64,000 bases of DNA from Cryobacterium ruanii (GTDB lineage Bacteria > Actinomycetota > Actinomycetes > Actinomycetales > Microbacteriaceae), in contig NZ_SOHK01000023.1 in assembly GCF_004404055.1 (NCBI RefSeq), positions 62,001-126,000 on the forward strand, read 5' to 3'. Shown one piece after another: positions 8,771 through 29,388 of the stretch. How positions within the stretch are numbered: the first letter of the stretch is position 1; each line of letters begins with the position of its first letter. The position numbers and the translations under genes are program-made. Under the pieces are notes generated by a model. It worked only from the letters and a program-made list of their open reading frames with translations, was not told the origin of the DNA and ran no database searches.

Positions 8771-8804
8771 CCCCCTGGCGCGATCGAGAGTTCACAAGGC
8801 TGGC

Positions 8805-9728: not shown

Positions 9729-10234
9729 TGGGCAGCGCCAAGGCACCAGACCAGCACCGCGCGCACGGCCGTACCGACGACGACTCCGTGCTGGTTGCGC
9801 CCGGTGTGCTCGAGCGTGACGATGCCCTGACCCGAACGACTCGTCGACAGCCGTTTGTCGGTGACGATGGTCTCGGAGTAGAGGGTGTCACCGTGGTGAA
9901 GCGGATGCGGAAACGTCACGGCAGAAAACCCCAGGTTGGCTACGATCGTGCCCTGGGTCAGCTGCGCGACCGAGCTGCCGACCATGGTCGAGAGGGTGAA
10001 CATGGAATTGACCAGGCGTTCGCCGAACGGCTGGGCGGCCGACCACGCCGCATCGAGGTGCAGGGCCTGGGTATTCATGGTCATCGTCGTGAAGAAAACG
10101 TTGTCGGCCTCGGTCACGGTGCGGCCTGGCCGGTGCTGGTACAGAGCCGAGAGGTCGAATTCCTCAAAGTAAAGTCCGCGCTGTAGGGCCGGGCGTCGCT
10201 TCCCCGCTGCGGGCGTGTCTGGGGTATCGGGCAT
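9725..10234 (-). CDS. MaoC family (R)-specific enoyl-CoA hydratase
   Basis: A 169-residue hot-dog-fold protein. It carries FEEFDLSALYQHRPGRTVTE at the start, the ANLGFSAVTFPHPLHHGDTLYSET core and the SRSGQGIVTLEH segment. The hydration Asp/His dyad expected in MaoC is not obvious at the classical spacing, as in other short members. A GAGGAGAAG site precedes the ATG. It corresponds to Rv2499c in the mycobacterial leucine locus, where a methylglutaconyl-CoA hydratase step is required. Assignment to that step is by context. It sits 32 bases after the ACAD gene and overlaps citE by 4 bases. Confidence 0.85.
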   Translation of the reverse strand: MPDTPDTPAAGKRRPALQRGLYFEEFDLSALYQHRPGRTVTEADNVFFTTMTMNTQALHLDAAWSAAQPFGERLVNSMFTLSTMVGSSVAQLTQGTIVANLGFSAVTFPHPLHHGDTLYSETIVTDKRLSTSRSGQGIVTLEHTGRNQHGVVVGTAVRAVLVWCLGAAQ

Positions 10235-10266
10235 CCGCTTCTCCTCGGTCTTGTCGTGCGGCCAGG

Positions 10267-11433: not shown

Positions 11434-13463
11434 TATGGATCTCCCTGATCTCGGGTGGTTTTGGTATCGGGGGTAACGGTCGCAACGATCTGGTCTAGGC
11501 GCACGAGATCGCCCGGGCCGACGCTGATCATGACCGTTCCCGCTTGGGGCGCGACGAGTTTGTGCTCCATTTTCATGGCCTCGATGGTGGCGAGCGTTTG
11601 CCCGGCAACCACGCGGTCTCCGCACGACACCGGCACCGCGACGACGGTGCCGGGCATCGGGGAGCGAACCTCGGGCTGCAGCGTGCCGGCCACCCGATCG
11701 CGTTCGGCTAGCAACTCGGCCAGTTGTTCGGCGCGGGTCGGCAGCAGCAGATCAAAAGCGACACCGTCATGGCCGAGGTGCAGGCGGCCGTGCGCTCGCG
11801 CCACGTCGTAGACCCGCGTCACACCCGCGAACTCGACCCGCACCCGGCCGACAGCCAGAGTGGCGAGGCTGCCGAGTCTGGGCGAAAGCTCGCCGACGCA
11901 AACGGATGCTGCGCCCGGCTCCCCCCAAACGCCCACGGTGCACACGCTGCCGCCGCCCACCCCGAGTTGGTACCGGGCTGGGCGGTGCTCACCGAGGCGC
12001 CAGCCGCTCGGCCGCTGCCAGACCGAGATCGCCGCATCGAAGCGGGCATTGTGAACGAGCAGGGCTGCGGCGGCAAGCACGTGGTCGTCGGCATGCCGAA
12101 ATGCGAGGTGCGGCAGGGTGCGCTCGATCAGTGCGGTGTCGAGCTGGCCAGCCCGCACAGGCGGTTCCTGCAGCAGCAGGCGAAGATATTCCAGATTGGT
12201 ATGCACCCCGAGCACGAGAAAGTCGGCGAGGGCACGATCAAGGCGCGCAATGGCGGCGGTCCGGTCGGGGGCCCACGCCACGACCTTGGCGAGCATCGGG
12301 TCGTAGGCGCCCCCAATTTGCAAGCCAGGCAGAAGGGCGCTGTCGACTCGGATGCCCTCGCCCACCGGCTCACGCAGCGCGAGCACCGTGCCGGTCATCG
12401 GCAGAAAATCGCGCTCGGGATTCTCCGCGTACACCCGAGCCTCGATCGCATGCCCATTGAGGCATATGTCGCTCTGCGCGAGGCCGAGCGGCTCACCCGC
12501 GGCGATTCGCAGCTGCCAGTCGACGAGGTCTACGCCGGTGACGAGTTCGGTGACCGGGTGTTCGACCTGCAGGCGAGTGTTCATCTCCATGAAAAAGAAA
12601 TCGCCGGGGGCGTCGGCGGCGACCAGGAACTCGACCGTGCCGGCTCCGCGATAGTCGACGCTGCGGGCGGCAGCGCACGCGGCCTCGCCGATGCGCACAC
12701 GCGTCGCCGGGTCGAGCAGTGGCGAGGGGGCTTCCTCGATGACTTTCTGATGGCGGCGTTGCAGGGAGCACTCACGTTCGCCGAGGTGGATGACGGCACC
12801 GTAATTGTCGGCGAGCACCTGAACCTCGATGTGGCGGGGGGTGGCGACGAGCCGTTCCAGAAAGAGGGTGTCGTCGCCGAACGCGCTCGCGGCCACGCGA
12901 CGTGCGGTGACCAGGGCGTCGGCGAGCTGCTCGGCGGCCTCGACGACTTCCATGCCCTTGCCGCCGCCGCCGGCGGACGGTTTGATCAGCAACGGGTAGC
13001 CCACTTCAGCGGCAGCCTCGATGAGCTGTTCGTCGCTGAGTCCGGGGCGGGCGATTCCGGGAATGATCGGCACCCCGAAACCGGCGACGTGATTCTTGGA
13101 ACGGATCTTATCGCCCATCACGGCCAACGCGTTGACGCTCGGTCCGATGAAGACGATGCCGGCGTCGGCGCAGGCCTGCGCGAACGCCTGGTTCTCGCTG
13201 AGGAACCCGTAACCCGGATGGATGGCCTCGGCGTCGGTCCGTGCGGCCGCGTCGAGGATAGCGTCGATATTGAGGTAGCTGCTGGCCGGGGCGGCGGGAC
13301 CGATCCGCACCGCGGCATCCGCTAGCTGTACATGTCTGGCCCCACGGTCGGCGTCACTGTACACGGCAACCGAGCGGATGCCCCGCTCGCGCAGGGTGCG
13401 CATGATGCGGCAGGCGATCTCACCGCGATTAGCGACGAGCACGGTGGTGAAGTCAGTTGTCAC
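11433..13463 (-). CDS. accA1: acyl-CoA carboxylase alpha subunit: biotin carboxylase + biotin carrier (AccA1-type)
   Basis: A 676-residue fusion. The biotin carboxylase domain (about 1-450) has VLVANRGEIACRIMRTL at the start, the ATP-grasp glycine loop KPSAGGGGKGM and the EMNTRLQVEHPVTE signature. A biotinyl domain at the C-terminus has the EAMKMEH acceptor lysine. Length matches 3-methylcrotonyl-CoA carboxylase alpha. GTG at 13463 lies 4 bases after the accD1 stop, in keeping with translational coupling. Together with accD1 it is expected to carboxylate 3-methylcrotonyl-CoA in leucine breakdown, by synteny with Rv2501c. Confidence 0.94.
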   Translation of the reverse strand: MTTDFTTVLVANRGEIACRIMRTLRERGIRSVAVYSDADRGARHVQLADAAVRIGPAAPASSYLNIDAILDAAARTDAEAIHPGYGFLSENQAFAQACADAGIVFIGPSVNALAVMGDKIRSKNHVAGFGVPIIPGIARPGLSDEQLIEAAAEVGYPLLIKPSAGGGGKGMEVVEAAEQLADALVTARRVAASAFGDDTLFLERLVATPRHIEVQVLADNYGAVIHLGERECSLQRRHQKVIEEAPSPLLDPATRVRIGEAACAAARSVDYRGAGTVEFLVAADAPGDFFFMEMNTRLQVEHPVTELVTGVDLVDWQLRIAAGEPLGLAQSDICLNGHAIEARVYAENPERDFLPMTGTVLALREPVGEGIRVDSALLPGLQIGGAYDPMLAKVVAWAPDRTAAIARLDRALADFLVLGVHTNLEYLRLLLQEPPVRAGQLDTALIERTLPHLAFRHADDHVLAAAALLVHNARFDAAISVWQRPSGWRLGEHRPARYQLGVGGGSVCTVGVWGEPGAASVCVGELSPRLGSLATLAVGRVRVEFAGVTRVYDVARAHGRLHLGHDGVAFDLLLPTRAEQLAELLAERDRVAGTLQPEVRSPMPGTVVAVPVSCGDRVVAGQTLATIEAMKMEHKLVAPQAGTVMISVGPGDLVRLDQIVATVTPDTKTTRDQGDP

Positions 13464-17285: not shown

Positions 17286-18824
17286 CTAAACCATGGTCAA
17301 TACCCGGGCCGGGTCGGCGAGGATGGTTCCGACATCGGCGAGAAAGCGGGAACCCTGCTCGCCGTCGACCAGGCGGTGGTCGAACGACAGGCTGAGCGTG
17401 AGCACCTTGCGCAGGGCGACCTGCCCGCGGTACTCCCACGGCTGTGAGCGGATGCTGCCCAGCGCGAGGATCGCCGCCTCCCCCGGATTAAGGATGGGGG
17501 TACCCGCATCGATACCGAAGACCCCGATATTGGTGATGGTGATCGTGCTGCCGGCCAGCGCCGCCGGCGTGGTCGTTCCGGCCCTGGCCGCCGTGGTGAG
17601 TTCGGCGAGCGCGGCGGCGAGGCCGCGCAGGTCGAGCCGTTCGGCATCCGGAATGTTCGGCACGAGCAGGCCGCGGGGGGTGGCCGCGGCGATGCCGAGG
17701 TTCACGTGGTGGAATTGCACGATTTCGCCGGCCGGCTCATCCCATCGGGTGTTCACCGCTGGAGTGCGGCCGACCGCGAGGCAGAGCGCCTTGGCCACCA
17801 CGGCGAGGATGCCGATGCCCGCGTCGGCAAACTGACGGTCGCCACTCAGGGACTCGAGCAGCTCGACGACGGGTGTGACGTCGATCGTGAGGAACTCGGT
17901 CACGTGCGGCGCCGTGAAAGCGCTCTGCACCATGGCGGCGGCCGTGAGCTTGCGCAGGCTCTTGATCGGCGTGCGGGTCTCGCGCTCGAACGCTCCGGCT
18001 CCGGCTCCGGCACCGGTACCGGCACCGGGCAGCGTGCCCGAGGGGTGGGGCGTCGTTGTGTGCAGGCCTGGCTCCGGCACGGAGTGGGTGAGGTGGGCGC
18101 GCACGTCGTCGCGGGTGATCAAGCCGTCGCGCCCGGTTCCGGTGACGGTGGTCAGGTCGACCCCGAGGTCACGTGCCAGCGCGCGCACCGGCGGCGTCGA
18201 GCGCGGTCGCTCCCCAGGCAATGCTGCGGCCGGTTGGTCTACAGCTGCCGCGGCGAGCGTCAACGGGTCTAGCGCGGCATCCGCTGCCGTGCGCGGTTGC
18301 GTGAATGGCGCGACCGGTGTTTTCCGATCAGCGAGAGCAGCCTGATCGGACGCAGGCCGGTCGACCACGACCGGCAGGCCGCCGCCCTGGCGGGCCCGGC
18401 GATGGGGATGACCGCCGCGCTCCACTGCGGGACCATAGCCGACCAGGTTGGCCTCGCGCTGCTCGACGGGTGCGAGTACTGGTGCGGGTACTGGTACTGG
18501 TGCGGGTAATGGTGCGGGTGCGGGTACTGGTGCGGGTGCGGGTGCGGGTGCGGCAGCATCCGCTGTCGGAGGCGTGTCAGGTTCGCCGCCGATATCGAAG
18601 CTGACGATAGGTTCGCCGACGTGCACGACCACACCGGCCGGCTGATGCAGTACGCGCACGACCCCGGCGAAGGGGCTCGGCAGTTCGACGACCGCTTTGG
18701 CCGTTTCAACGTCGGCGATGTGCTGGTTGAGGGTGACTTCGTCGCCCGGCGCCACGAGCCAGGCCACGATCTCGCTCTCGGTAAGCCCCTCACCGAGGTC
18801 GGGCAGTTTGAAGATCTTGATCAT
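17286..18824 (-). CDS. bkdC: branched-chain 2-oxo acid dehydrogenase E2 (dihydrolipoamide acyltransferase)
   Basis: A 512-residue E2 with one lipoyl domain (residues 1-80, lipoyl Lys K43 in VETAKAVVE), a long Ala/Pro linker (about 85-120), a peripheral-subunit-binding domain (VRALARDLGVDLTTVTGTG, about 200-235) and a CoA acyltransferase domain ending with the active-site SFDHRLVDGEQG. It transfers the branched acyl group to CoA. It is the last gene of bkdABC; its ATG overlaps the bkdB stop by 4 bases. No E3 gene is adjacent, so a shared lipoamide dehydrogenase must serve the complex. Confidence 0.94.
   Translation of the reverse strand: MIKIFKLPDLGEGLTESEIVAWLVAPGDEVTLNQHIADVETAKAVVELPSPFAGVVRVLHQPAGVVVHVGEPIVSFDIGGEPDTPPTADAAAPAPAPAPVPAPAPLPAPVPVPAPVLAPVEQREANLVGYGPAVERGGHPHRRARQGGGLPVVVDRPASDQAALADRKTPVAPFTQPRTAADAALDPLTLAAAAVDQPAAALPGERPRSTPPVRALARDLGVDLTTVTGTGRDGLITRDDVRAHLTHSVPEPGLHTTTPHPSGTLPGAGTGAGAGAGAFERETRTPIKSLRKLTAAAMVQSAFTAPHVTEFLTIDVTPVVELLESLSGDRQFADAGIGILAVVAKALCLAVGRTPAVNTRWDEPAGEIVQFHHVNLGIAAATPRGLLVPNIPDAERLDLRGLAAALAELTTAARAGTTTPAALAGSTITITNIGVFGIDAGTPILNPGEAAILALGSIRSQPWEYRGQVALRKVLTLSLSFDHRLVDGEQGSRFLADVGTILADPARVLTMV
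18472..18553. repeat. low-complexity GGTGCGGGTA-type repeats encoding the E2 linker
   Basis: Irregular repeats of GGTGCGGGTACTGGT-like units lie inside bkdC and encode the Ala/Pro hinge after the lipoyl domain. Such linkers are normal for E2 proteins. The DNA repetition makes length variation by slippage likely. Confidence 0.85.
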
Positions 18825-19894
18825 CGGCGCCCCATGACCCGGTCGACGCCGTCGAGAATACGGTCGAGGTCGGGCAGGTGGTGGCTTTCGAGTTTGGCCG
18901 GCGGGTACGGCACGTCGAAGCCGGTCACCCGCACCGGCGCGGCTTCCAGGTAGCTGAAGCAGCGTTCAGTGACGGTCGCGATGATCTCGCCGCCGAGCCC
19001 GCCCGACTGGGCCGCCTCGTGGGTCACGACGAGACGCCCGGTCTTCTGAACGGATGCCTCCACCACCGCGTAGTCCACCGGTGACAGTGAGCGCAGGTCG
19101 ATGACTTCGATCGACACGCCCTCGTCAAGAGCGGCGAGCGCCGCGTCGCGCGCCGTAGACACGAGCGCGCCGTAGGCGAGGAGCGTGACATCCGTTCCTG
19201 GGCGCACGATGACGGCCTGGTCCATCGGGGTACCCAGTTCGGGAACGACCTCACCCTTGACGTGATAACGACGTTTGGGCTCGAAGTAGAGCACCGGGTC
19301 GTCACTCGCGATGGCCTGCCGAATGAGACTGTAGGCGTCCTGGGCGTTGGAGACGGCGATCACGCGCAGGCCGGAGGTGTGCGTGAAGTAGGCCTCGGGC
19401 GACTCGGAGTGGTGTTCGGCCGCTCCGATGCCACCGCCGAACGGCACCCGGATGGTGATCGGCATGCGCACGGCGCCCTGGGTACGGTAGTGGAACTTGG
19501 CGACCTGGCTGACGATCTGGTCGAAACCGGGAAAGATGAAGCCGTCGAACTGGATCTCACAGACCGGGCGGTAGCCGCGGTAGGCGAGGCCGACCGCGGT
19601 GCCGATGATCGCGGATTCGGCGAGCGGCGTGTCGATGACCCGGCGAGCGCCGAACTGGGCGAGCAGGTCGCTCGTTACACGGAAGACGCCGCCGAGGGCT
19701 CCGATGTCTTCGCCGAGCAGCACAACCCTGGGGTCGTCGAGCATGGCCTGGCGCAGGCCCTCGTTGATAGCCTTGCCCATGGTAAGCGTCTTGGTCTCCC
19801 TCAGGGGAGTGGGGGCCGGGTCCGTGTAGGCCGGCACAGCGAGGCCGGGGACGGTCGACACGGTGGCGGGGGTCATCAGGGTGGTCATGGTCAT
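18821..19894 (-). CDS. bkdB: branched-chain 2-oxo acid dehydrogenase E1 beta
   Basis: A 357-residue transketolase-like beta subunit of the thiamine-diphosphate E1. Hallmarks are GKAINEGLRQAMLDDPRVVLLGEDIG at the start of the domain, FGGGIGAAEHHSESPEAYF and GLRVIAVSNAQDAYSLI. Starts are possible at GTG 19897 or ATG 19894. I give the ATG, which forms a TGATG overlap with the bkdA stop, and a GGAAAGG site precedes both. It pairs with bkdA to decarboxylate the 2-oxo acids of leucine, isoleucine and valine. The first 30 residues are Thr/Pro-rich and poorly conserved. Confidence 0.94.
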   Translation of the reverse strand: MTMTTLMTPATVSTVPGLAVPAYTDPAPTPLRETKTLTMGKAINEGLRQAMLDDPRVVLLGEDIGALGGVFRVTSDLLAQFGARRVIDTPLAESAIIGTAVGLAYRGYRPVCEIQFDGFIFPGFDQIVSQVAKFHYRTQGAVRMPITIRVPFGGGIGAAEHHSESPEAYFTHTSGLRVIAVSNAQDAYSLIRQAIASDDPVLYFEPKRRYHVKGEVVPELGTPMDQAVIVRPGTDVTLLAYGALVSTARDAALAALDEGVSIEVIDLRSLSPVDYAVVEASVQKTGRLVVTHEAAQSGGLGGEIIATVTERCFSYLEAAPVRVTGFDVPYPPAKLESHHLPDLDRILDGVDRVMGRR

Positions 19895-21009
19895 CACGCC
19901 TTTCCGTTCTGTTCTGCACCGCTCTGTTCTGCACCGCCGAAGCTCGTGAGGTACCCGGCGTAGTCGGTGCGCTGGCGCTCGAGGGTGGCGTTTGGGGTGA
20001 CGTAGACGTGGTCGAACACGCTCAGCGGTTCGGGGTCCGGCATGCCGATGCAGCCGGCCCGCAGTTCGACTGCCGCGGCGTCGGCGAGGGCCGCAGTGGC
20101 TTCCTCGACCTCGGGGGTGATCTCACCGAGACTGGTCAACAGCCGGTGCAGGCGCAGCAGGGGGTCCCGCGTCTTCCACGCGGCGAGTTCGGCCGGGTCT
20201 CGGTAGCGGGTGGGGTCATCCGCTGTGGTGTGCGGCCCCATGCGGTAGGTGACGGCTTCGACGAAGGTGGGGCCGCCGCCGGTGCGGGCCCGGTCGAGGG
20301 CGATGCGGGTGGCCGCCAGCACCGCGATCACATCATTGCCGTCGACGCGAAGGCTCGGAATGCCGAAGCCCGGCGCGCGATCGGCGATGTTGCGGTGCGC
20401 CTGCACCCCGACCGGCTCGGAGATGGCCCAGTGGTTGTTTTGGCAGAAGAAGACCACCGGGGCCTGGAAACTCGCCGCGAAGACCATGGCCTCGTTGACG
20501 TCGCCCTCGCTCGTGGCACCGTCGCCGAAGTAGGCGATGGCGACGGAGTCGACTTCGTCGCGCTGCGCGCCGAGCGCCCACCCGGTGGCGTGCAGGGTCT
20601 GCGCGCCGATGATGATCGCCGGGGTGGCCAGATTGACGGTGTAGGGATCCCAGCCGGACTGGGCGTTACCGCGCCACACCTTGACGATGTCGGTCAGTTT
20701 GACTCCGCGGCAGTAGGCGACCGCGTTCTCGCGGTAGCTCGGAAAGGCGAAGTCGTCACTGCGCAGGGCGCGGGCCGAGCCGACCTGGGCAGCTTCCTGG
20801 CCGAGCAGCGGCGGCCACAGGCCGAGTTCGCCCTGGCGTTGCAGGGCGGTCGCCTCGGTATCGAGGCGGCGCACCACGACCATGTCACGGTACAGCGCGA
20901 GCAGGGCCGCCCCGTCGAGATCTTCGACCCACGAGTCGAAGTCCGGGCGGGGCATCCGCTCGCCGTCAAGCGAGAGGAGCTGCACCGGCTGGAGGGATGA
21001 ATCAATCAT
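19894..21009 (-). CDS. bkdA: branched-chain 2-oxo acid dehydrogenase E1 alpha
   Basis: A 371-residue alpha subunit. The thiamine-diphosphate motif YFGDGATSEGDVNEAM...QNNHWAIS is near residues 165-205 and the conserved FPSYRENAVAYCRG is near 90. YRMGPHTTADDPTRYR is the phosphorylation-loop equivalent that orders the active site. It opens the bkdABC operon; the ATG follows a GGAGC site. The order and spacing match pdhABC/bkdABC (Rv2497c-Rv2495c), which in M. tuberculosis encodes branched-chain and not pyruvate dehydrogenase. It is divergent from an Lrp/AsnC gene. Confidence 0.94.
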   Translation of the reverse strand: MIDSSLQPVQLLSLDGERMPRPDFDSWVEDLDGAALLALYRDMVVVRRLDTEATALQRQGELGLWPPLLGQEAAQVGSARALRSDDFAFPSYRENAVAYCRGVKLTDIVKVWRGNAQSGWDPYTVNLATPAIIIGAQTLHATGWALGAQRDEVDSVAIAYFGDGATSEGDVNEAMVFAASFQAPVVFFCQNNHWAISEPVGVQAHRNIADRAPGFGIPSLRVDGNDVIAVLAATRIALDRARTGGGPTFVEAVTYRMGPHTTADDPTRYRDPAELAAWKTRDPLLRLHRLLTSLGEITPEVEEATAALADAAAVELRAGCIGMPDPEPLSVFDHVYVTPNATLERQRTDYAGYLTSFGGAEQSGAEQNGKA

Positions 21010-21074
21010 GGGTAGCTCCGAGCGTCATTGCTAAAGTTGACGTGAGCCTATGTCGACGTAGCAGGGAGCACAAC

Positions 21075-21091
21075 CACTATCAAAAATAGTG
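21075..21091. promoter_or_regulatory. candidate Lrp/AsnC operator in the bkdA-lrp gap
   Basis: CACTAT-CAAAA-ATAGTG is a perfect inverted repeat with 6-base arms and a 5-base centre. A further CACTAT half site at 21138-21143 overlaps the regulator's ATG. Length and spacing suit a dimer site of an Lrp-type protein. It lies 66 bases upstream of bkdA and about 50 bases upstream of the regulator gene. Confidence 0.5.
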
Positions 21092-21140
21092 AGCAGAGTG
21101 CCCTATTCAAGCGCGCCGGTCCATGTTAATGTTTTGCACT

Positions 21141-21605
21141 ATGTACAGCCTTGACAAGACCGACACGAAGCTTCTCCAGGCGCTCTCCGCCGACCCGCGC
21201 AGCACCTTTGTTGCACTCGCCGACACGCTGGGCCTGTCCCGCAATACCGTGCAGGCCCGAATGAAACGCCTGGAAGACTCTGGCGCCTTTCTCGGCTTCG
21301 ATCGTCGCATCAATCCGGCCGCGCTCGGCTATCCGCTGACCGCGTTCATCGAGGTTCACGTGCAGCAGAAACGGCTCGCCCAGATCGTGATCGACCTCGC
21401 TCAGATCCCCGAGATCGTGCAGGCGCACGGAATGAGCGGGCAGACCGACCTGCTCGTGCGGGTGGTCTGTACGGATGCCGCAGACCTGTTCCGCATTGAC
21501 GGAACCATCCTCGCCTGCGACGGGGTCGAACGCACCGAGACCTCGCTCGCGATGGGCGAGGTCATCCCGTATCGTCTCACCCCGCTGCTCGACCGTCGCG
21601 GGTAA
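21141..21605 (+). CDS. Lrp/AsnC family regulator (BkdR-like)
   Basis: A 154-residue regulator. The N-terminal winged helix (LDKTDTKLLQALSADPRSTFV...LGLSRNTVQARMKRLE) is followed by a RAM ligand-binding domain (FIEVHVQQKRLAQIV, VRVVCTDAADLFRI). It is divergent from bkdABC. In pseudomonads an Lrp-type BkdR controls the same dehydrogenase in response to branched-chain amino acids, so a similar role here is likely. The start could also be at 21123, which lacks a ribosome site and adds six residues; ATG at 21141 gives the usual family N-terminus. Confidence 0.9.
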   Translation: MYSLDKTDTKLLQALSADPRSTFVALADTLGLSRNTVQARMKRLEDSGAFLGFDRRINPAALGYPLTAFIEVHVQQKRLAQIVIDLAQIPEIVQAHGMSGQTDLLVRVVCTDAADLFRIDGTILACDGVERTETSLAMGEVIPYRLTPLLDRRG

Positions 21606-21615
21606 CGATATCTAT

Positions 21616-21644
21616 TTGCGAAAGTCTTCATATACTTATATAAA
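21616..21644 (+). promoter_or_regulatory. promoter of the Ehr-type operon
   Basis: TTGCGA (21616-21621) and TATAAA (21639-21644) are spaced by exactly 17 bases in an AT-rich island that stands out from the GC-rich surroundings. Transcription would start near 21651, leaving a leader of roughly 135 bases before the first gene. The overlapping ATACTTATATAAAG stretch resembles a sequence in front of the ArsR gene at 29335-29348. Confidence 0.55.
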
Positions 21645-21787
21645 GAAGTAATGGACTTATACGCGCCGGTAGTCTTGCACTCAACCAGACGTATCGCAGA
21701 ATCCGTCGCCTGCCCTTCACCCTTCGACTTCGCGCTTCCCACAGAAGGCACCAGCTTCGTGAACATGCATGCACACCGGGGACTCGT

Positions 21788-22273
21788 ATGAGTTTCCTGC
21801 GATTGGCCACCCTGATCCGTCACGGCGCAAGGATCGCCGAACCGGCACCGCCCGCTCCGCCGCTTTTTGCCGGAGCCGAGGCGCTCGGCGGCAGCGTGCA
21901 GGTGCGCTTCATCAATGCCGGCGGCTGCAATGACTGTGCACTCGAAGTCTCGGCCGCCTTCGGTCCGGTCTACGACGTCGAACGCTATGGCGCGCGCCTG
22001 GTTCCCTCGCCGCGGCACGCCGACGTGCTCCTCATCGTCGGCAGCGTCACCCGCAACATGGCGGAGCCGCTGCGCCGCACCATCGAGGCCACCCCCACCC
22101 CCCGGTTTGTGATTGCGGTCGGTGACTGCGCTCTGAACGGCGGTGCCTTTCGCGACGGTTACGGCATCGTGGGGCCCGTTTCTGACTTCGTGCACGTCGA
22201 TATCGAGGTTCCGGGCAGCCCGCCGGAACCGGCCGATATCGTGCGGGCCCTGCGCCGGATAACCGGCCGATGA
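21788..22273 (+). CDS. NuoB/HycG-like small subunit of an Ehr complex, lacking one Fe-S cysteine
   Basis: A 161-residue homologue of the complex I PSST / group 4 hydrogenase small subunit, which holds the proximal [4Fe-4S] cluster next to the quinone/NiFe site. C47 and C50 (GGCNDCALE) and C114 (VGDCALNGG) match three ligands. The fourth, normally in VPGCPP, is serine (VPGSPP, S144, codon AGC). The cluster may therefore be Ser-ligated, a 3Fe form, or absent. First gene of a tightly coupled six-gene operon, with an ATGA overlap to the next gene; a GGGGA site precedes the ATG. It corresponds to Rv0082 in the M. tuberculosis Rv0081-Rv0087 cluster. Confidence 0.88.
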   Translation: MSFLRLATLIRHGARIAEPAPPAPPLFAGAEALGGSVQVRFINAGGCNDCALEVSAAFGPVYDVERYGARLVPSPRHADVLLIVGSVTRNMAEPLRRTIEATPTPRFVIAVGDCALNGGAFRDGYGIVGPVSDFVHVDIEVPGSPPEPADIVRALRRITGR

Positions 22274-24408
22274 CCGCCATCGGAGCCGAACTGCTCCTGC
22301 AGACCGAGATCGGTGCGGGACTGCTCCCACAAACCGCCATCGGAGCCGAACTGCTCCTGCAGACCGAGATCGGTGCGGGACTGCTCCCACAAACCGCCAT
22401 CGGAGCCGGACTGCTCCTGCAACTCGGTCTCGGTGCGCTCGCCGTGGTGAGCGGTCTCATGGCCGCACCGTCCTTACGGTCGCGGGCGGGCGGCATCCTC
22501 TGCACCCTCCTTGCCGTGACCGGCTTGGCCACCGGCCTCGGGGCGCTGCTCGGCGCCACCGGCGGCCTGCTCATTCCGATCGCCCTTCCAATGGATCCGC
22601 TAGTGCTGGCCCCCGACCGCTTGGGTGGCCTGTTCATGCTCGTCGTCTCCGGCGTCGGCATTCTCGTGTCGCTCTACTCCATGAGTTCCACTCGGGGAGC
22701 CGACGCGAGCCGCACCGCCTGGGTGGCCATGCCGGTCTTCCTCGTGGGCATGCAGCTCGTACCGGCTGCGACCGACTCTGTCTCGTTCCTGCTGGCCTGG
22801 GAGATCATGACACTCGGCTCCACCGTGCTGCTGCTCGCCGACCATGCCAGCCGCGCCACGGTCGCCTCCGCCAGCATCTGGTATTCGGCTATGTCGCAGC
22901 TGAGTTTCTTCTTCATCCTGGCCGGATTCGCGGTGCTCGCCGCTGCATCGGGCGGCACGAGCTTCACCAGCCTGCAGGCCGTCGAACCCGGCTCCTGGCC
23001 GGCGAACCTGGCTTTCGTACTCCTTTTACTCGGATTTGGCGGCAAGGCCGAACTCGTGCCGCTGCACGTCTGGGTACCCCGGGTGCTGCCCGAAGCGCCC
23101 AGTCACGTCTCGGCCGCCATGAGCGGCGCCATGGTCAAGATCGGCGTCTATGGCGGCCTGCTGGTCTGCGTTCGCCTGCTGCCCGACGGCCCGCCCTGGT
23201 GGGGCATCGCGATCATGCTCGTGGGCGGCGTATCCGCTCTCTACGGCATTCTGCAGGCCTCCGTGTCGAGCGATCTCAAGGTTCTGCTCGCCTACTCGAC
23301 CACCGAGAACATGGGCCTGGTCTTTCTCGGACTCGGGGCGAGCATGCTGCTGCGCGGCTTCGACGCCACAGCGGCAGCGGATGCCGCGCTCGTCGCCGCT
23401 CTGCTGCTCACCATCAGCCACGCCGCGTTCAAATCGACCCTGTTCCTCGGCGCCGGCGCGATCATCCACGCCACCGGAGAACGCAACCTCGACCGGCTCG
23501 GCGGGCTCGGTGCCCGCATGCCGGTGACCGCCGCCGCGTTCGGCATTGCAAGCCTCGGCGCGGCCGCCATCCCGATCACGAGCGGCTTCGTCGCCGAGTG
23601 GATGCTGCTGCAGTCGCTCATCCACGGTGGTCGCCTTGACGGGGCGGTCGTCTCGGTCGCGGCATCCGTTGCCATGCCGCTGGCCGTCGCCGTGATCGCA
23701 CTGACCGCCGGCCTCGCCCTGCTCACTTTCGTGAAGGCCTACGGCATCGCTTTTCTCGCGCGGCCGCGCAGCGCAGCGGCAGCGGATGCCCGTGAGGTGC
23801 CGCGGCTCATGCAGCTCGCCCTCGCCCTCGGCGCGCTGTTCGTGCTCGCCCTCGGGCTGCTCCCCGGGCCGATCGCCGCGCTCGTTGCGCACACGGTCAG
23901 CTCGAACCCGACAACCGCCGTGCAGTCGGTCGGCCTCGGCGGCGTCTCGCTGCCGGGTATCGGGGCGGTGCTCGACCCGATCATGCTCGTCGTGCTGTCG
24001 GCACTGGTCGCCATCCCGGTGATCGTCTCGATCATCGTGTCGGCCCGCCGGCATCCGCATCGCACGGTCGACCTGCCATGGGGTGGTGGCGGCTCCCGCG
24101 CCAGGCCGCGCATGCAGTACACCGCAACCTCCTACGCCGAGCCGCTCGTGCGGGTGTTCGACGACGTGCTCAAGCCGTCCCGCGACGTGCAGGTCACCCA
24201 CGTCGCCGAGTCGCGTTATCTGGTGGAACGCGTGCGGGTGGAACAACGCGTCTCGGACATTTTTGAAACCCGGCTGTACCGGCCGGTGCTCAACCTGCTC
24301 CAGCGCTACGGAATCGTCGTACGCCACCTGGCCAACGGCAGCATCCACCGATACCTGTCCTATTCCTTCGTTGCTCTACTGATCGTGCTGATCGTGGTCT
24401 CGCTATGA
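22270..24408 (+). CDS. HyfB/NuoL-like proton-channel subunit of the Ehr complex
   Basis: A 712-residue antiporter-like membrane protein with about 14-16 hydrophobic segments. The proton-channel region has ELVPLHVWVPRVLPEAPSHVSA with the conserved Lys/His pattern, then LLAYSTTENMG and SHAAFKSTLFLGAGAI. A cytosolic-facing C-terminal stretch (SYAEPLVRVFDDVLKP) precedes a last helix, as in HyfB. The first 50 residues are an in-frame tandem repeat of TAIGAELLLQ / TEIGAGLLPQ units with no counterpart known to me. Start overlaps the previous stop (ATGA) and the stop overlaps the next start. Corresponds to Rv0083. Confidence 0.9.
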   Translation: MTAIGAELLLQTEIGAGLLPQTAIGAELLLQTEIGAGLLPQTAIGAGLLLQLGLGALAVVSGLMAAPSLRSRAGGILCTLLAVTGLATGLGALLGATGGLLIPIALPMDPLVLAPDRLGGLFMLVVSGVGILVSLYSMSSTRGADASRTAWVAMPVFLVGMQLVPAATDSVSFLLAWEIMTLGSTVLLLADHASRATVASASIWYSAMSQLSFFFILAGFAVLAAASGGTSFTSLQAVEPGSWPANLAFVLLLLGFGGKAELVPLHVWVPRVLPEAPSHVSAAMSGAMVKIGVYGGLLVCVRLLPDGPPWWGIAIMLVGGVSALYGILQASVSSDLKVLLAYSTTENMGLVFLGLGASMLLRGFDATAAADAALVAALLLTISHAAFKSTLFLGAGAIIHATGERNLDRLGGLGARMPVTAAAFGIASLGAAAIPITSGFVAEWMLLQSLIHGGRLDGAVVSVAASVAMPLAVAVIALTAGLALLTFVKAYGIAFLARPRSAAAADAREVPRLMQLALALGALFVLALGLLPGPIAALVAHTVSSNPTTAVQSVGLGGVSLPGIGAVLDPIMLVVLSALVAIPVIVSIIVSARRHPHRTVDLPWGGGGSRARPRMQYTATSYAEPLVRVFDDVLKPSRDVQVTHVAESRYLVERVRVEQRVSDIFETRLYRPVLNLLQRYGIVVRHLANGSIHRYLSYSFVALLIVLIVVSL
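22273..22422 (+). repeat. 60-bp in-frame tandem repeat at the start of the HyfB-like gene
   Basis: Two identical 60-base units (22273-22332 and 22333-22392) and a 30-base near-identical half unit (22393-22422) encode a 20-residue block, itself made of two 10-residue halves (TAIGAELLLQ and TEIGAGLLPQ). It begins right after the ATG, so repeat number changes would lengthen the N-terminus without a frameshift. Confidence 0.97.
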
Positions 24409-25358
24409 ACACCGCGCTCAGTTCCATCATCATCGCCTCCGTGCAGGTCGTGCTGTTCGTCTTCCTCGCTCCGCTGCTGATGGGCCTGATCCGTCAGGTG
24501 CGGGCCACGATCGAGGGGCGCGCCGGAGCCGGAATCTGGCAGCCCTGGCGTGACGTGCGCAAGCTACTCGCCAAGAACCCCGTGCGTGCCGAAGGCAGCA
24601 GCTGGATGCTCAGGGCCGGGCCGGTCGCCCTTATGGTGTCGAGTCTGCTGCTCTGCGTGCTGCTGCCGCTCGTGGGTACCATCCCGTTCCCGTCCATTCC
24701 GAGCGACCTCTTCGTCATCGTCTCGGTCATGCTCATCGGCGTCGTCGCACTCGCCCTGGTCGGGCTCGACGGCGGAACCGCATTCGGAGGCATGGGGTCG
24801 AGCCGGCACATGACCGTTGCCGCTCTCGTCGAACCCACGCTGTTGCTCTCGGTCTACGCCCTGTCGATCCCCGCTGGGACCAGCACCATCTCGGCCATCG
24901 TCGAAACCCGGCTGCTCTCCCCCGAGGTCATCATCTCACCGGTCAGCGTGCTCGCCCTCGTGGCCCTGTCGATCGCAATCATGGCCGAAACGGCCCGTCT
25001 GCCGATCGACAATCCGGGCACCCACCTCGAACTAACCATGCTGCATGAGGCGATGACCCTCGAGGCAAGCGGCCGCGACCTGGCCTGGCTCGAAGTTGGC
25101 TCCTGGCTGAAGCTCGCCGCCCTGCTCGGTCTGGTCAGCAACCTGGTCGTGCCGTGGGGTATCGTGACCGATTTCAGCGCCCTGGGCCTGCTGATTGGCG
25201 TCGTCACCATCGCGGTGAAGGTGCTCGTGCTCGGCGTGCTGCTGAGCGTCGGCGAGATCTTTCTGGCCAAGGTGCGTCTGTTCCAGGTGCCCGAGCTGCT
25301 CGCGGGTTCCTTCGCCCTCGCCTTCCTAGCCGTCACCGCCTCCTACCTGGTCGCCTGA
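24405..25358 (+). CDS. HycD/HyfC (NuoH-like) membrane subunit of the Ehr complex
   Basis: A 317-residue membrane protein with about eight hydrophobic segments. It is the NuoH-type anchor that couples the hydrophilic module to the ion-pumping arm. Markers are GLIRQVRATIEGRAGAGIWQPWRDVRKLLAK near residue 25, MAETARLPIDNPGTHLELTM near 200 and GEIFLAKVRLFQVPELL near the end. The Glu-rich TM5-6 loop is retained. Its ATG overlaps the previous stop by 4 bases. Corresponds to HycD, Rv0084. Confidence 0.93.
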   Translation: MNTALSSIIIASVQVVLFVFLAPLLMGLIRQVRATIEGRAGAGIWQPWRDVRKLLAKNPVRAEGSSWMLRAGPVALMVSSLLLCVLLPLVGTIPFPSIPSDLFVIVSVMLIGVVALALVGLDGGTAFGGMGSSRHMTVAALVEPTLLLSVYALSIPAGTSTISAIVETRLLSPEVIISPVSVLALVALSIAIMAETARLPIDNPGTHLELTMLHEAMTLEASGRDLAWLEVGSWLKLAALLGLVSNLVVPWGIVTDFSALGLLIGVVTIAVKVLVLGVLLSVGEIFLAKVRLFQVPELLAGSFALAFLAVTASYLVA

Positions 25359-25370
25359 GGAGCATCCGTC

Positions 25371-26030
25371 GTGTTTGAAGCTTTCTATCCCCAGCTGATC
25401 GGCCTCTGCACCGGCTCCCTGCTGCTCACGAGCGCACTCATGGTCTGGCGTCATTCCCTGCTCGCCTCGATCCGGCTGCTCGCCCTGCAGGGTATGGCCC
25501 TCGCCGCGCTCGTCGCCGTGATCGGCATCGCCGAGGGCGAGCCCGAGCTCGTGCTCGTGTCGCTGCTGATTTTCTCGGTCAAGGGCGTCGGCCTGCCGTG
25601 GGTGCTCGCACACCAGTCCAAGGCCGCGGTCAAGCAGATTCAGGAATCACCCCGGCTCAACCCGACCGCCGCGCTGCTCGCCGTCACCCTGCTGACCATC
25701 CTCAGCTACGTCGTGGTCAGCCGCGTCTTCGGCCTCGGCGACAGTGTGACCGGCCACGCCGCACCGATCGGCCTCGCCATGGTGCTGATCGGTTTTCTGC
25801 TGCTGATCAGCCGGCGCCGCGCCCGCTCCCAGCTCATCGGCTTTCTGATGCTCGACAACGGCATCGCCACGCTCGCGTTCTTGACTAGCGGCGGTGTGCC
25901 GATTCTGCTCGAGTTCGCGGTCTCCCTCGACGTGCTGCTGGTCGTGCTCATTCTGCACGTGTTCGCCGGCCGCATGCGCACCAAGTTCGGCGGCACGGCC
26001 GTCGATCAGCTCAGAGAGTTGCACGACTGA
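25371..26030 (+). CDS. HyfE/HycP-like membrane subunit of the Ehr complex
   Basis: A 219-residue protein with about seven hydrophobic segments, similar to hydrogenase-4 component HyfE. Its first half resembles NuoK-type subunits (LLLTSALMVWRHSLLASIRLLALQG), and its later part has LLLISRRRARSQLIGFLMLDNGI. GTG at 25371 follows a GAGGAG site. The stop overlaps the next ATG by one base. Subunits of this type occur only in hydrogenase-4-like and Mrp-linked complexes, not in standard complex I, which helps to classify the operon. Corresponds to HycP, Rv0085. Confidence 0.9.
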   Translation: MFEAFYPQLIGLCTGSLLLTSALMVWRHSLLASIRLLALQGMALAALVAVIGIAEGEPELVLVSLLIFSVKGVGLPWVLAHQSKAAVKQIQESPRLNPTAALLAVTLLTILSYVVVSRVFGLGDSVTGHAAPIGLAMVLIGFLLLISRRRARSQLIGFLMLDNGIATLAFLTSGGVPILLEFAVSLDVLLVVLILHVFAGRMRTKFGGTAVDQLRELHD

Positions 26031-27478
26031 TGTCGTTCATACTGTGGATTCCCCTGGTCGGCCCGCTGGCCTTCGCCGTCCTCGGCCTGCTGCTGCGCGG
26101 CTCGGCGCTGTGCCGCTTCGTCGGCGTCGCCGCGTCGAGCGCCGTGCTCGTGTCGGGACTGCTTCTGGTCAGCGCAGCGCTGAGCGGCTACGTGCCCGAC
26201 AGCGGCGGCGGCATGCTGCGCGCCGATGCTCTCTCCGCCTATATGCTCACGGTCGTCGGAGCGGTCGGCCTCATCTCCACCTGGGGCGGCCTCAGCAGCG
26301 CTACGTCGAGCCGAACCAGGGACGCCGCCGGCTACGAGGCGCTCATCGCCCTGTTCCTTGCCGCGATGTCCCTCGCCGTACTCGCCGACAGCATCGGCCT
26401 GATGTGGGCCGCCGTGGAAGCCACGACCATCGCCACCGCGTTCCTGGTCGGCCACCACCGCACCCGCCGGTCGCTTGAAGCGGCGTGGAAGTACGTCATC
26501 CTCGGCTCGGTCGGCGTCGCCATCGCGCTGCTCGGCATCGTGCTGATCTACGCGGCCTCGGTCGGCACCGACACCCCGACCCTGTCCTGGTTACTGCTGA
26601 GCCAGTCCGACCTCGGCCTCGACCCGGCGCTCATCACCGCCGGCGGCGCACTCGCCGTACTCGGTTTCGCCACCAAGTCGGGCCTCGCCCCAATGCACAG
26701 TTGGCTGCCGGACGCCCACAGCCAGGCCCCGGCACCGGTCTCCGGTCTCATGTCGGGTGTACTGCTCTCGGTCGCGCTCTACGCCATCCTGCGCATCCAG
26801 TCCATCACCGACCTCGTCATCGGCCCGGAGTTCCTGCGCACCATGCTCAGCATCGGCGGCCTGCTCTCGCTGCTCGTGGCCGCTTCCCTGCTGATTCGCC
26901 AACGCGACTACAAACGGATGCTCGCCTACTCCAGCATCGAACACATGGGCCTCATGGCGATCGGTGTCGCCATCGGCCCAGCCGCGCTCCCCTCGGTGCT
27001 GTTGTACATTTTCGGCCACGGCCTGATCAAAGCGACCCTGTTCGTGATCTCCGGGCGCATCCTCAAGATCGAGGGCACCCCGTCGATCTCCGACGTGCGC
27101 GCCCTGCTGGTGCGACGGCCCGGCCTGGCCGTGCCCTGGCTCATCGCCATGGCAGCCATCGTCGGCTTCCCGCCGTTCAGCATCTTCTTCTCCGAGGTCG
27201 GCATCATCATGGCCGGTTGGTCGGTGGGCCTCGGCGGCATCGTCGGGGCAGCCCTCGTGCTGCTACTCGTGATCTTCGCCGCGTTCACCCGCCTGACCGT
27301 GCAGATGACCATCGGAGTTCCCTCGGCGGGCACCGCCTTCACACCGGACTACTCGGCCCACGGCCCACGCCTGCCGATCATTTTGGCCCTGGCCACGACG
27401 GCAACGATCGCATTCGTGGCCGAACCGGTCGGCACCCTTCTGTTGCAGGCCACAGCCGTTCTGGGAGGTACTAACTGA
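26030..27478 (+). CDS. HyfF/HycQ (NuoN/NuoM-like) proton-channel subunit of the Ehr complex
   Basis: A 482-residue antiporter-like membrane protein with about 14 hydrophobic segments. The conserved channel segment TKSGLAPMHSWLPDAHSQAPAPVSG is near residue 220 with its Lys and His, followed by RMLAYSSIEHMGLM and FGHGLIKATLFVISGRIL. It is the second antiporter-like subunit of the operon. It overlaps both neighbours by one base (TGATG). Corresponds to HycQ, Rv0086. Confidence 0.93.
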   Translation: MSFILWIPLVGPLAFAVLGLLLRGSALCRFVGVAASSAVLVSGLLLVSAALSGYVPDSGGGMLRADALSAYMLTVVGAVGLISTWGGLSSATSSRTRDAAGYEALIALFLAAMSLAVLADSIGLMWAAVEATTIATAFLVGHHRTRRSLEAAWKYVILGSVGVAIALLGIVLIYAASVGTDTPTLSWLLLSQSDLGLDPALITAGGALAVLGFATKSGLAPMHSWLPDAHSQAPAPVSGLMSGVLLSVALYAILRIQSITDLVIGPEFLRTMLSIGGLLSLLVAASLLIRQRDYKRMLAYSSIEHMGLMAIGVAIGPAALPSVLLYIFGHGLIKATLFVISGRILKIEGTPSISDVRALLVRRPGLAVPWLIAMAAIVGFPPFSIFFSEVGIIMAGWSVGLGGIVGAALVLLLVIFAAFTRLTVQMTIGVPSAGTAFTPDYSAHGPRLPIILALATTATIAFVAEPVGTLLLQATAVLGGTN

Positions 27479-28956
27479 TGCATGACGAACTGCGCGAGCT
27501 GGACCGGGCCGACCTGGCCGCCGCCGCGAGTGCTCTGCTCGACGCCGGAAGCCGCCTGGCCCTGGTCGCGTGCCACGAGGACACCGACAGCTTTCGCATC
27601 GTCTATTCCTTCGTCGGCACGACCCCGGCGTTGCGGGCCGACCTGTCGGTCACCATGCCGCGGGACGACGCCTGGATTCCGAGCCTCGCCGAGATTTCCC
27701 TGTCAGCCGGCAACTTCGAGCGCGGAATACGCGATCTGTATGGGGTTGTGCCGCGCAACCATCCGCAGCCGCACCGTCTGGTGCGCCACGGCCACTGGCC
27801 GCGCGGCTGGTACCCGATGCTGCGCGCCAACGCCGTCGTGCCCGAGTTCGAACCCGACACGGAATCGTTCCCGTTCGTGCCGGTGGAGGGTCCCGGTGTG
27901 TACGAGATCGCCGTCGGCCCCATTCACGCCGGCATCATCGAGCCGGGTCACTTTCGGTTCTCGGTCGTCGGCGAAACCGTCGTACGGATGGAAGCCCGCC
28001 AGTGGTACCTGCATCGCGGTGTCGAGAAGGTCTTCGAGGGCAAGACCGCGGCCGAGGGAGTCCCCCTGGCTGAACAGATCAGCGGCGACACCGCCGTTGG
28101 GCACTCCCTCGCTTTCGTCATGGCCGTTGAACAGGCTGCCGGCATCGAGGTCTCCGAGCCCGATCGGCTGCTGCGCGCGCTGCTGCTCGAGTTGGAACGT
28201 CTCTACAACCACGTGACCGATCTCGGCTCCCTCGCCAACGACGTGGGGTTCGGCATCATCGACGCTCAGGCCCAGGGGTTGCGCGAGCAACTGTTGCGCA
28301 TCAACAAAACGGTCACCGGCCACCGGCTGCTGCGCGGCGCCCTGAGCGTGGGCGGCACCCGGGTCGCGGCACTTCCCGACGCGGCCGACCTCGTTCGCAT
28401 CGGTGCCGCCATGGCCGAACTGGTCGGCATCACCCTCGACCACGCCATCGTGCGCGGCCGTTTCACCGGCACCGCCCGGCTCTCCAACGCGCAGGCAACC
28501 ACGATCGGAACGCTCGGCTACGTCGCCCGTGCATCCGGCATCGATACGGATGCCCGCAACGAGCATCCGTTCATCAATCTCGGCGAAGTCTTCCACGTCG
28601 TGACCGAGGAGGGCGGCGACGTACTCGCTCGGTACACCGTGCGTGCCCGCGAGGTGGAAGTGTCCATAGCGGTCGCCGTCGACCTGCTACGCCGATTGCA
28701 GGGACACACCGGGACCGCAGTCAGCGTTGATCCGGCGACGGCCGGCACCGGGCTCGCCCTGGTCGAAGCGTGGCGGGGAACCGCAACTCACCGGGTCGAA
28801 CTCGCCGCCGACGGCACCCTCGCCCGGGTGAAGGTCGTCGACCCGTCATTCCTGAACTGGCCCGCAGTGCCGGGCGCCTTATCGGAGACCATCGTTCCCG
28901 ACTTTCCGCTCGCCAACAAGAGCTTCAACCTCTCCTACGCGGGAAACGATCTGTAA
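27478..28956 (+). CDS. HycE-like large subunit (NuoC-NuoD fusion) without NiFe ligands
   Basis: A 492-residue protein: a NuoC/HycE-N-like domain (about 1-115, RGIRDLYGVVPRNHPQPHRL) fused to a NuoD/hydrogenase large-subunit domain (VGPIHAGIIEPGHFRF near 147). In group 4 hydrogenases two CxxC motifs bind the NiFe centre. Here the first (E-x-x-CGxC) is EQISGDT with S202 and T205. The second (DPCxxC) is DPSFLNW with S457 and N460. All four cysteines are gone, so the protein cannot hold a NiFe site. The conserved H209 after the first motif is kept. Last gene of the Ehr operon; corresponds to HycE, Rv0087. Confidence 0.93.
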   Translation: MHDELRELDRADLAAAASALLDAGSRLALVACHEDTDSFRIVYSFVGTTPALRADLSVTMPRDDAWIPSLAEISLSAGNFERGIRDLYGVVPRNHPQPHRLVRHGHWPRGWYPMLRANAVVPEFEPDTESFPFVPVEGPGVYEIAVGPIHAGIIEPGHFRFSVVGETVVRMEARQWYLHRGVEKVFEGKTAAEGVPLAEQISGDTAVGHSLAFVMAVEQAAGIEVSEPDRLLRALLLELERLYNHVTDLGSLANDVGFGIIDAQAQGLREQLLRINKTVTGHRLLRGALSVGGTRVAALPDAADLVRIGAAMAELVGITLDHAIVRGRFTGTARLSNAQATTIGTLGYVARASGIDTDARNEHPFINLGEVFHVVTEEGGDVLARYTVRAREVEVSIAVAVDLLRRLQGHTGTAVSVDPATAGTGLALVEAWRGTATHRVELAADGTLARVKVVDPSFLNWPAVPGALSETIVPDFPLANKSFNLSYAGNDL

Positions 28957-28983
28957 CGAACACCGGCGTCCTTGGAGAAGGAC

Positions 28984-29319
28984 TTATTCCTGTTCGAGAT
29001 GCTGGAGCAAGGCGTGCGAATCGGTGAGGTTGGCCAATACCATGCGCTTGGCTGCGGCGAGCAGCTCGACCGCGCTCGGGTCGCGCAGGGCATAGAAAAT
29101 GGAGTTGCCCTCCCGGCGGGTCAGGACCACGCCGGCGCGGCGCAGCACGCCGAGTTGCTGCGAGAGGTTGGACAGCTCGCAGCCGAGGGCCTCGGCGAGA
29201 GAACCGACCGAACGCTCGCCGGCCACGAGCTGCTCCAGAACCTGCACCCGCAACGGATGCCCGAGCGATTTGAACAGGTCAGACTTCAATTGGGCAGCAG
29301 GCAAACCGGAAGACAGCAC
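28984..29319 (-). CDS. ArsR family regulator (Rv0081-like), probable regulator of the Ehr operon
   Basis: A 111-residue winged-helix protein: LFKSLGHPLRVQVLEQLVAGERSV, then LGCELSNLSQQLGVLRRAGVVLTRREGN. It has a single cysteine, so the classical CxCxxC metal site is missing. In M. tuberculosis the homologue Rv0081 heads the same gene cluster and acts in the hypoxia network. Here it lies tail-to-tail at the 3' end of the operon, 27 bases away. The start is GTG at 29319. An AT-rich promoter-like stretch upstream (29335-29348) resembles the operon's own promoter region. Confidence 0.9.
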   Translation of the reverse strand: MLSSGLPAAQLKSDLFKSLGHPLRVQVLEQLVAGERSVGSLAEALGCELSNLSQQLGVLRRAGVVLTRREGNSIFYALRDPSAVELLAAAKRMVLANLTDSHALLQHLEQE

Positions 29320-29334
29320 AGGTTTAGTGTATCC

Positions 29335-29348
29335 ATACTTTATAAATC
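29335..29348 (-). promoter_or_regulatory. promoter/candidate ArsR operator in front of the ArsR gene
   Basis: ATACTTTATAAATC lies 16 bases upstream of the GTG. It shares ATACTT plus TATAAA with the operon promoter at 21632-21645, differing by one inserted base. Both could be -10 elements, an operator of the ArsR protein, or both. Confidence 0.4.
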
Positions 29349-29388
29349 TTTCATTTAGATTCCGGCGCCCGCCGGTCGGCCGAACGGG

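What the first reader, a model, noticed from the sequence alone, without database searches (positions are those of the whole stretch)
21788..29319. Hydrogenase-4/complex I-like Ehr operon with all NiFe ligands lost
Six overlapping genes encode a full membrane arm (HyfB, HycD, HyfE, HyfF types) plus HycG- and HycE-like subunits, with an ArsR gene at the end. The large subunit has S202/T205 and S457/N460 where two CxxC motifs should bind NiFe, so it cannot be a hydrogenase. No ferredoxin-like (NuoI/HyfH) or NADH-module gene is present, so the electron donor is unknown. The set parallels M. tuberculosis Rv0081-Rv0087, whose reaction is to my knowledge not established. Such energy-converting hydrogenase-related (Ehr) complexes have been proposed as links between hydrogenases and complex I.
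Basis: partly seen in the sequence, partly recalled or inferred. Interest (0 to 1): 0.85.

Follow-up and report, generated by a model that had tools for sequence, protein, structure and literature searches.

The report
Pump complex losing its electron wire
A Cryobacterium-like bacterium keeps an intact relative of the respiratory proton pump complex I that has lost the hydrogenase metal site and one holder of its last iron-sulfur cluster, so it may move ions without carrying electrons.

Summary
The operon is real: HycG-, HyfB-, HycD-, HyfE-, HyfF- and HycE-like genes at 21788-28956 (+), ArsR convergent at 28984-29319. The host is Cryobacterium-like; its genome gave no other NuoD/HycE match, no NuoF and no HypD match.

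Loss is graded over a 12-row Microbacteriaceae group (CCCS, CCCN, GCAS, ACAS; SH-aLRT 97), and other losses lie elsewhere in the tree. Yet the six genes are under purifying selection (dN/dS 0.065-0.148 against five close loci), and most pump residues and the pocket replacing NiFe are kept.

Best reading (0.45): an Ehr-family, complex I-like ion translocator whose conserved work no longer needs the proximal cluster. Main rival (0.32): a serine-ligated cluster still works in Cryobacterium. New variant of a known kind; no activity has been measured.

The parts
21788..22273 (+). HycG/NuoB-like small subunit, 161 aa; cluster positions C47, C50, C114, S144
   Evidence: Oxidored_q6 2.4e-27; alignment with E. 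coli HycG, HyfI, NuoB; model pLDDT 91.3, best PDB match MbhJ 6cfw_J
22217..22219 (+). codon of S144, where E. coli HycG, HyfI and NuoB have the fourth cluster cysteine (PGCPP)
22270..24408 (+). HyfB-like antiporter subunit (start codon uncertain because of an N-terminal repeat)
   Evidence: Proton_antipo_M 5.6e-48; charged residues kept
24405..25358 (+). HycD/HyfC/NuoH-like membrane subunit
   Evidence: NADHdh 4.7e-32; eight charged positions 12 of 12 in the clade
25371..26030 (+). HyfE-like membrane subunit
   Evidence: NCBIfam hydrogenase 4 membrane subunit 9.3e-18, below cut-off; same place in relatives
26030..27478 (+). HyfF-like antiporter subunit
   Evidence: Proton_antipo_M 1.5e-55; charged residues kept
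27478..28956 (+). HycE/NuoCD-like large subunit without NiFe ligands
   Evidence: Complex1_49kDa 1.3e-25, Complex1_30kDa 2.2e-12; best PDB match FHL HycE 7z0s_E
28081..28104 (+). S202-H209 (SGDTAVGH), in place of the first NiFe motif CGxCxxxH
28915..28953 (+). N480-L492 (NKSFNLSYAGNDL, C-terminus), in place of the second NiFe motif DPCxxC
28984..29319 (-). ArsR-type regulator
   Evidence: HTH_5 1.6e-08; NCBIfam metalloregulator ArsR/SmtB 1.9e-23; ArsR recurs beside the operon
21610..21654 (+). conserved AT-rich block upstream of the operon, possible regulator site
   Evidence: present in 8 of 8 Cryobacterium-type loci aligned; no function shown
29320..29360 (-). stretch upstream of ArsR that begins with a similar ATCTAWWTG
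   Evidence: a 15-base query from the operon block did not match here at 3 mismatches

Best explanation
[quoted passage not shown] In its clade that work no longer depends on electron transfer through the proximal cluster. The place where hydrogenases hold NiFe has become a conserved polar pocket (S/T-G-D-T...H plus a C-terminal NxSYxGNDL tail), next to a conserved proton path. I propose that binding of a ligand, or a non-redox reaction that takes up or releases protons in this pocket, is coupled to ion flow in the membrane arm, as DAB2 couples a NuoL-like subunit to CO2 hydration. Shown: gene content, ligand losses, retained pump and pocket residues, purifying selection. Inferred: ion movement, independence from electrons, any pocket chemistry.
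For: Small-subunit ligands lost stepwise in a 12-row group with SH-aLRT 97. Within that group 22 of 25 charged membrane-arm positions checked are 12 of 12. Pocket residues G203, D204, T205, H209 are 12 of 12, and N484, S486, Y487, G489, D491 are 11 of 11 with letters. The same pocket is kept in the three T-C-D-D rows, with S for T205. dN/dS of the six genes 0.065-0.148 against five close loci. No ferredoxin or NADH-module match near any row of the group. Precedent for non-redox coupling of a NuoL-like subunit: DAB2 (PMC13144422, passages).
Against: Three cysteines remain in Cryobacterium, so a cluster may still form. C50 is kept even in the Agromyces-type rows. 61 of 81 Ehr rows keep all four cysteines, so the family at large probably uses the cluster. 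Geobacter Ehr proteins rise with formate, and the authors suggest a redox link (PMC7894505, passages). The pocket is not resolved in the model: residues 130-176 and 482-492 have pLDDT under 50. S202 is S6 T4 A2 and E155 is E9 D3 within the group. Against farther members of the group dN/dS is 0.099-0.484, partly with saturated dS. No activity data exist here.
Confidence: 0.45

Rival explanations
1. The Cryobacterium complex is still redox-active: three cysteines and S144 hold a [4Fe-4S] or [3Fe-4S] cluster that takes electrons from a soluble carrier, and reduction of an unknown acceptor in the pocket drives pumping. The deeper losses in Agromyces-type relatives are a later, separate step.
For: C47, C50, C114 are present in all nine CCCS/CCCN rows and in the window; serine can serve as a cluster ligand in other proteins (recalled). 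Most Ehr rows keep four cysteines. Papers suspect a redox role for Ehr (PMC6349859, PMC7894505, passages).
Against: Asn at the same place in M96-type rows; three of four ligands lost in the sister rows with pump and pocket kept. No donor gene found nearby. No second cluster subunit to pass electrons on.
Confidence: 0.32
2. A plain cation/proton antiporter or ion channel of Mrp type; the HycG/HycE part is only an assembly cap and its pocket has no role.
For: Membrane subunits are of the antiporter family, and most charged residues are kept.
Against: The pocket and the proton-path residues of HycE are among the most conserved of the protein. The genome has two further Proton_antipo_M proteins on another contig, so an Mrp-like system probably exists besides (the other Mrp genes were not checked).
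Confidence: 0.15
3. The operon is decaying and has no function in this clade.
For: Ligand loss is graded, as in decay; 2 of 10 sampled genomes of the genus gave no small-subunit match.
Against: Intact frames in the close loci and dN/dS 0.065-0.148, like the flanking E1a/E1b genes at 0.055-0.169.
Confidence: 0.05
4. A formate hydrogenlyase or other [NiFe] hydrogenase.
For: The large subunit passes the Pfam cut-off of NiFeSe_Hases (30.9 bits against 25.8), so automatic annotation may say so.
Against: No NiFe cysteine and no HypD match in the genome.
Confidence: 0.01

Closest known systems
Ehr complexes (mycobacterial Rv0082-Rv0087 type; Nitrospira, CPR and other Ehr)
   Same: Same six subunits in the same order as in the mycobacterial loci fetched, ArsR nearby, no NiFe ligands
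   Different: Small subunit has lost a cluster ligand (S144), with more lost in sister rows; ArsR is convergent downstream
E. coli formate hydrogenlyase / hydrogenase 4
   Same: Best PDB sequence and fold match for the large subunit (7z0s_E); HyfB/C/E/F-like membrane arm
   Different: No NiFe ligands, no HycB/HycF/HyfA/HyfH-like gene found, no HypD in the genome
Respiratory complex I
   Same: NuoB/CD/H/L/M/N-type homology; proton-path residues N244, H245, R351, E392, R433 have counterparts
   Different: No NADH module; the quinone-site His position is I154 and the canopy Asp is Asn484
Archaeal Mbx/MBS type complexes
   Same: Hydrogenase-related, not hydrogenases (PMC6349859 and PMC9474812, passages and section 10)
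   Different: Described as reducing a substrate with electrons; no sequence comparison with them was made here
DAB2 (DabA2/DabB2)
   Same: A NuoL-like subunit coupled to non-redox chemistry (PMC13144422, passages): analogy of mechanism only
   Different: DabA2 is carbonic-anhydrase-like; the HycE/HycG models match complex I superfamily chains instead

Membership tests
Ehr (energy-converting hydrogenase-related complex) | Related to group 4 hydrogenases but lacking the residues that bind Ni and Fe (as worded in PMC6349859, passages) | tested here: met
Ehr (energy-converting hydrogenase-related complex) | Mrp antiporter-like membrane subunits (PMC6349859, passages) | tested here: met
   HyfB and HyfF: Proton_antipo_M; charged residues kept
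Ehr (energy-converting hydrogenase-related complex) | Four cluster cysteines in the small subunit: usual in the family, not stated as defining in the papers seen | tested here: not met
   C47, C50, C114, S144; 61 of 81 Ehr rows have all four
Ehr (energy-converting hydrogenase-related complex) | Redox reaction coupled to ion translocation (suspected in PMC6349859) | not testable with these tools
   no activity data
Group 4 [NiFe] hydrogenase | Two CxxC motifs binding NiFe | tested here: not met
   S202/T205 and S486/G489
Group 4 [NiFe] hydrogenase | Hyp maturation machinery in the genome | tested here: not met
   no HypD match, control genomes found; other Hyp proteins not searched
Respiratory complex I | NADH module (NuoE/F/G) and NuoI | tested here: not met
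   none in window 12001-40000; no Complex1_51K in the genome
Respiratory complex I | Quinone-site His on the beta1-beta2 loop (NDUFS2 H95 in PMC9474812) and Tyr (role recalled) | tested here: not met
   aligned positions are I154 and G203
Mrp antiporter | MrpA/MrpD-type subunits together with MrpB, C, E, F, G | not tested
   antiporter-type subunits present; the small Mrp subunits were not searched
DAB complex | DabA, carbonic-anhydrase-like partner | not tested
   no DabA search was run; considered only as an analogy

The most novel reading that the evidence does not exclude
A branch of the complex I superfamily has become a redox-free machine: its metal sites are gone or going while the pump and a new conserved pocket are kept under selection, so ion flow is coupled to a non-redox reaction or ligand. 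A similar end state seems to have been reached about three times (window clade; T-C-D-D rows; D-D-D-S/A with C-C-P-S rows).
Probability: 0.3. Interest if true: 0.87.

Novelty: new variant of a known kind. Interest (0 to 1): 0.62.

Why it matters
The role of Ehr complexes is called unknown or uninvestigated in three papers seen as passages (PMC10284858, PMC10432482, PMC7894505). A clade that keeps pump and pocket but gives up the last cluster makes the question 'is Ehr a redox enzyme?' directly testable. If the complex works without electrons, a complex I-type membrane arm can be driven by, or can drive, something other than redox chemistry, which bears on how complex I couples and how it arose. 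It also warns against the label hydrogenase: the large subunit passes the NiFeSe_Hases cut-off without any ligand.

Tried and rejected
Hydrogenase: rejected on ligands and HypD. Pseudogene: disfavoured by dN/dS and intact frames. Shifted NiFe cysteines: excluded, HycE has one cysteine. Hidden partner genes: among ORFs of 90 aa or more in 83 loci, the Ehr genes, ORFs lying over them (judged by position) and ArsR (44 loci) apart, no family reached more than 11 loci in the list printed. E. coli ferredoxin-type and NADH-module queries found nothing in 93 of 105 sources; of the 12 with a match 4 are the E. coli controls and 8 are L098, L106, L115, L118, L121, L142, L180, L181. Ferredoxins unlike those of E. 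coli, or small ones, could be missed.

Row L095, flagged as a loss (PCCC), has a shifted tandem Cys-Cys pair (sequence), so 19 of 83 rows, not 20, lack a full set; the count of changes was not recomputed. L180/L181 may keep a shifted third cysteine; only the fourth is clearly lost. Promoter scan: 0 sites, 0.7 expected; terminator-like sites 4, 3.8 expected: uninformative. The 15-base query from the operon's upstream block matched only that block, on both strands, and not the ArsR upstream stretch, so ArsR control is only suggested. The HycE model does not resolve the pocket. Passages in PMC6177252 and PMC12361115 gave nothing on function.
Full report
What is there. Six + strand genes (21788-28956) encode a HycG/NuoB-like small subunit, HyfB, HycD/NuoH, HyfE and HyfF membrane subunits and a HycE/NuoCD-like large subunit; an ArsR gene lies convergent at 28984-29319. 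Junctions are -4, -4, +12, -1, -1 bases. The nearest named relatives are Cryobacterium luteum and C. glaciale (HycE 93% identical), so I take the host to be a Cryobacterium (Microbacteriaceae). The genome gave one Complex1_49kDa match (this gene), no Complex1_51K, no HypD, one weak NiFeSe_Hases match (this gene) and four Proton_antipo_M matches, two of them on another contig. Of 10 genomes of the genus examined, 8 have the small subunit.

The NiFe site. In alignments with E. coli HycE, HyfG and NuoCD and with 81 Ehr-type rows, HycE C241/C244 face S202/T205 and C531/C534 face S486/G489. The large subunit has one cysteine, C32. The substitutes are themselves conserved. Among the 61 rows with four small-subunit cysteines, G203 is 61, D204 58, T205 48 (S 8), H209 60, S486 60, Y487 61, G489 60, D491 61; 67 of 81 rows end exactly in GNDL. 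One of these 61, L115, has cysteines at the NiFe positions. Proton-path residues named for HycE in PMC9474812 (section 10 read) map to E155, N244, H245, R351, E392 and R433; its canopy Asp529, called strictly conserved there, is Asn484 here. E392 is invariant in 29 of 29 aligned proteins; E155 is G in 8 of the 61 rows, and R351 is K in the three T-C-D-D rows.

The small subunit. The proximal cluster ligands of E. coli HycG and HyfI face C47, C50, C114 and S144; NuoB has a shifted Cys-Cys pair and the same last two. Of 398 Microbacteriaceae genomes, 15 match the small subunit at 1e-10. Of these 15, six are CCCS (window included), three CCCN, one GCAS, one ACAS, one CCCC (L137), and three (L138-L140) show no cysteine in the aligned part. 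In the host phylum 97 of 396 genomes match at 1e-22, complex I and hydrogenase small subunits included. I read the 29 new loci that were returned: 23 have four cysteines, two are TCDD, three CCPS, and one is CCP with its end cut.

Tree. 98 loci plus the window were offered; 14 lacked one of HycE, HyfF or HycG and two (L050, L082) failed length limits, leaving 83 rows. The tree is of HycE, a quick search with SH-aLRT only. The 12 Microbacteriaceae rows with lost ligands form one group (97) among actinobacterial rows with four cysteines. The T-C-D-D rows (Daviesbacteria MAG L119, and L178, L179 from the host's phylum) form another (100), and the D-D-D-S/A plus C-C-P-S rows a third (100). The tool needs four changes and starred branches force three; one flagged row (L095) is not a true loss.

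Selection and retained parts. Nei-Gojobori dN/dS of the window against five close loci is 0.065-0.148 over the six genes, 0.055-0.169 for flanking E1a/E1b, 0.041-0.081 for ArsR and 0.017-0.032 for AsnC; against five farther members of the group it is 0.099-0.484 for the six genes, with dS up to 2.43. Of 25 charged positions checked in HyfB, HyfF and HycD, 22 are 12 of 12 in the group; HyfB K290 and D335 are 9 of 12 and HyfF E389 is 11 of 12. K290 is also variable in rows with four cysteines (N30, K20). In HycE, G203, D204, T205, H209, N244, H245, R351 and R433 are 12 of 12; E155 is E9 D3, S202 is S6 T4 A2. So the cluster site erodes while pump and pocket mostly stay. C50 stays in the 12-row group and in the T-C-D-D rows, for which I have no explanation.

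Structure. The small-subunit model is confident (pLDDT 91.3); its best solved match is MbhJ, then complex I NuoB homologues and HycG. The large-subunit model (81.7) matches E. coli FHL HycE best, but residues 100-105, 130-176 and 482-492 are below 50, so the pocket cannot be judged.

Partners and regulation. Among ORFs of at least 90 aa in 83 loci, ArsR (44 loci) is the only neighbour family above 11 loci in the list printed, Ehr genes and ORFs over them apart. E. coli NuoI, HyfH, HycF, HycB, HyfA and NuoE, F, G found nothing in 93 of 105 sources, among them all 12 rows of the window's group; of the 12 with a match, 4 are E. coli controls and 8 are more distant loci. An AT-rich block upstream of the operon is conserved in 8 of 8 Cryobacterium-type loci and a similar ATCTAWWTG stretch lies before ArsR, but a pattern search did not link the two places.

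How it may work. Best reading (0.45): an ion translocator whose pocket acts without electrons; DAB2 is a precedent for a NuoL-like subunit with non-redox chemistry (PMC13144422, passages). Main rival (0.32): in Cryobacterium a cluster survives with serine as ligand. Antiporter with an idle cap 0.15, decay 0.05, hydrogenase 0.01.

Literature. Ehr complexes without NiFe ligands are known (PMC6349859, PMC10284858, PMC7304191, PMC10432482; passages only). Geobacter Ehr proteins are more abundant with formate, and a link to formate dehydrogenase is suggested (PMC7894505, passages). PMC7304191 says CPR Ehr proteins lack the cysteines that bind metal cofactors; the passage does not speak of the small subunit. 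In the listings of searches, and in the passages read, I saw no mention of Ehr small subunits that lost cluster ligands; these cover open-licence papers only. He 2011 is not held; Marreiros 2013 and Coppi 2004 were seen only as citations and were not looked up.

Noticed in passing
L141-L143 (other Microbacteriaceae); L142 4081-11642: A second, divergent hydrogenase-like complex whose small subunit shows no cluster cysteine (D-D-D-S/A). In L142 one 964-aa frame (8748-11642) holds a ferredoxin-like stretch, the small subunit and a HyfB-like part.
   Followed up: partly
L119, L178, L179: Ehr operons with T-C-D-D in place of the four cluster cysteines, in a Daviesbacteria MAG and in two genomes of the host's phylum, with the six genes in the same order.
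   Followed up: partly
L180, L181: Complexes with C-C-P-S in the small subunit and a HyfH/NuoI-like gene beside it.
   Followed up: no
L115 (Candidatus Brocadia MAG): A large subunit with cysteines at all four NiFe positions and a HyfH-like neighbour that falls among Ehr rows in the tree.
   Followed up: no
window 22272-22421: Tandem repeat of 30 bp (5 copies; 60 bp at 98%) that would encode the N-terminus of HyfB; the match in L032 begins only at residue 67, so the real start may lie downstream.
   Followed up: no
window 17286-21605: Genes that look like branched-chain-type dehydrogenase E2, E1 beta and E1 alpha (by eye) and an AsnC-type regulator lie beside the operon and keep that place in L032 and L033.
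   Followed up: no
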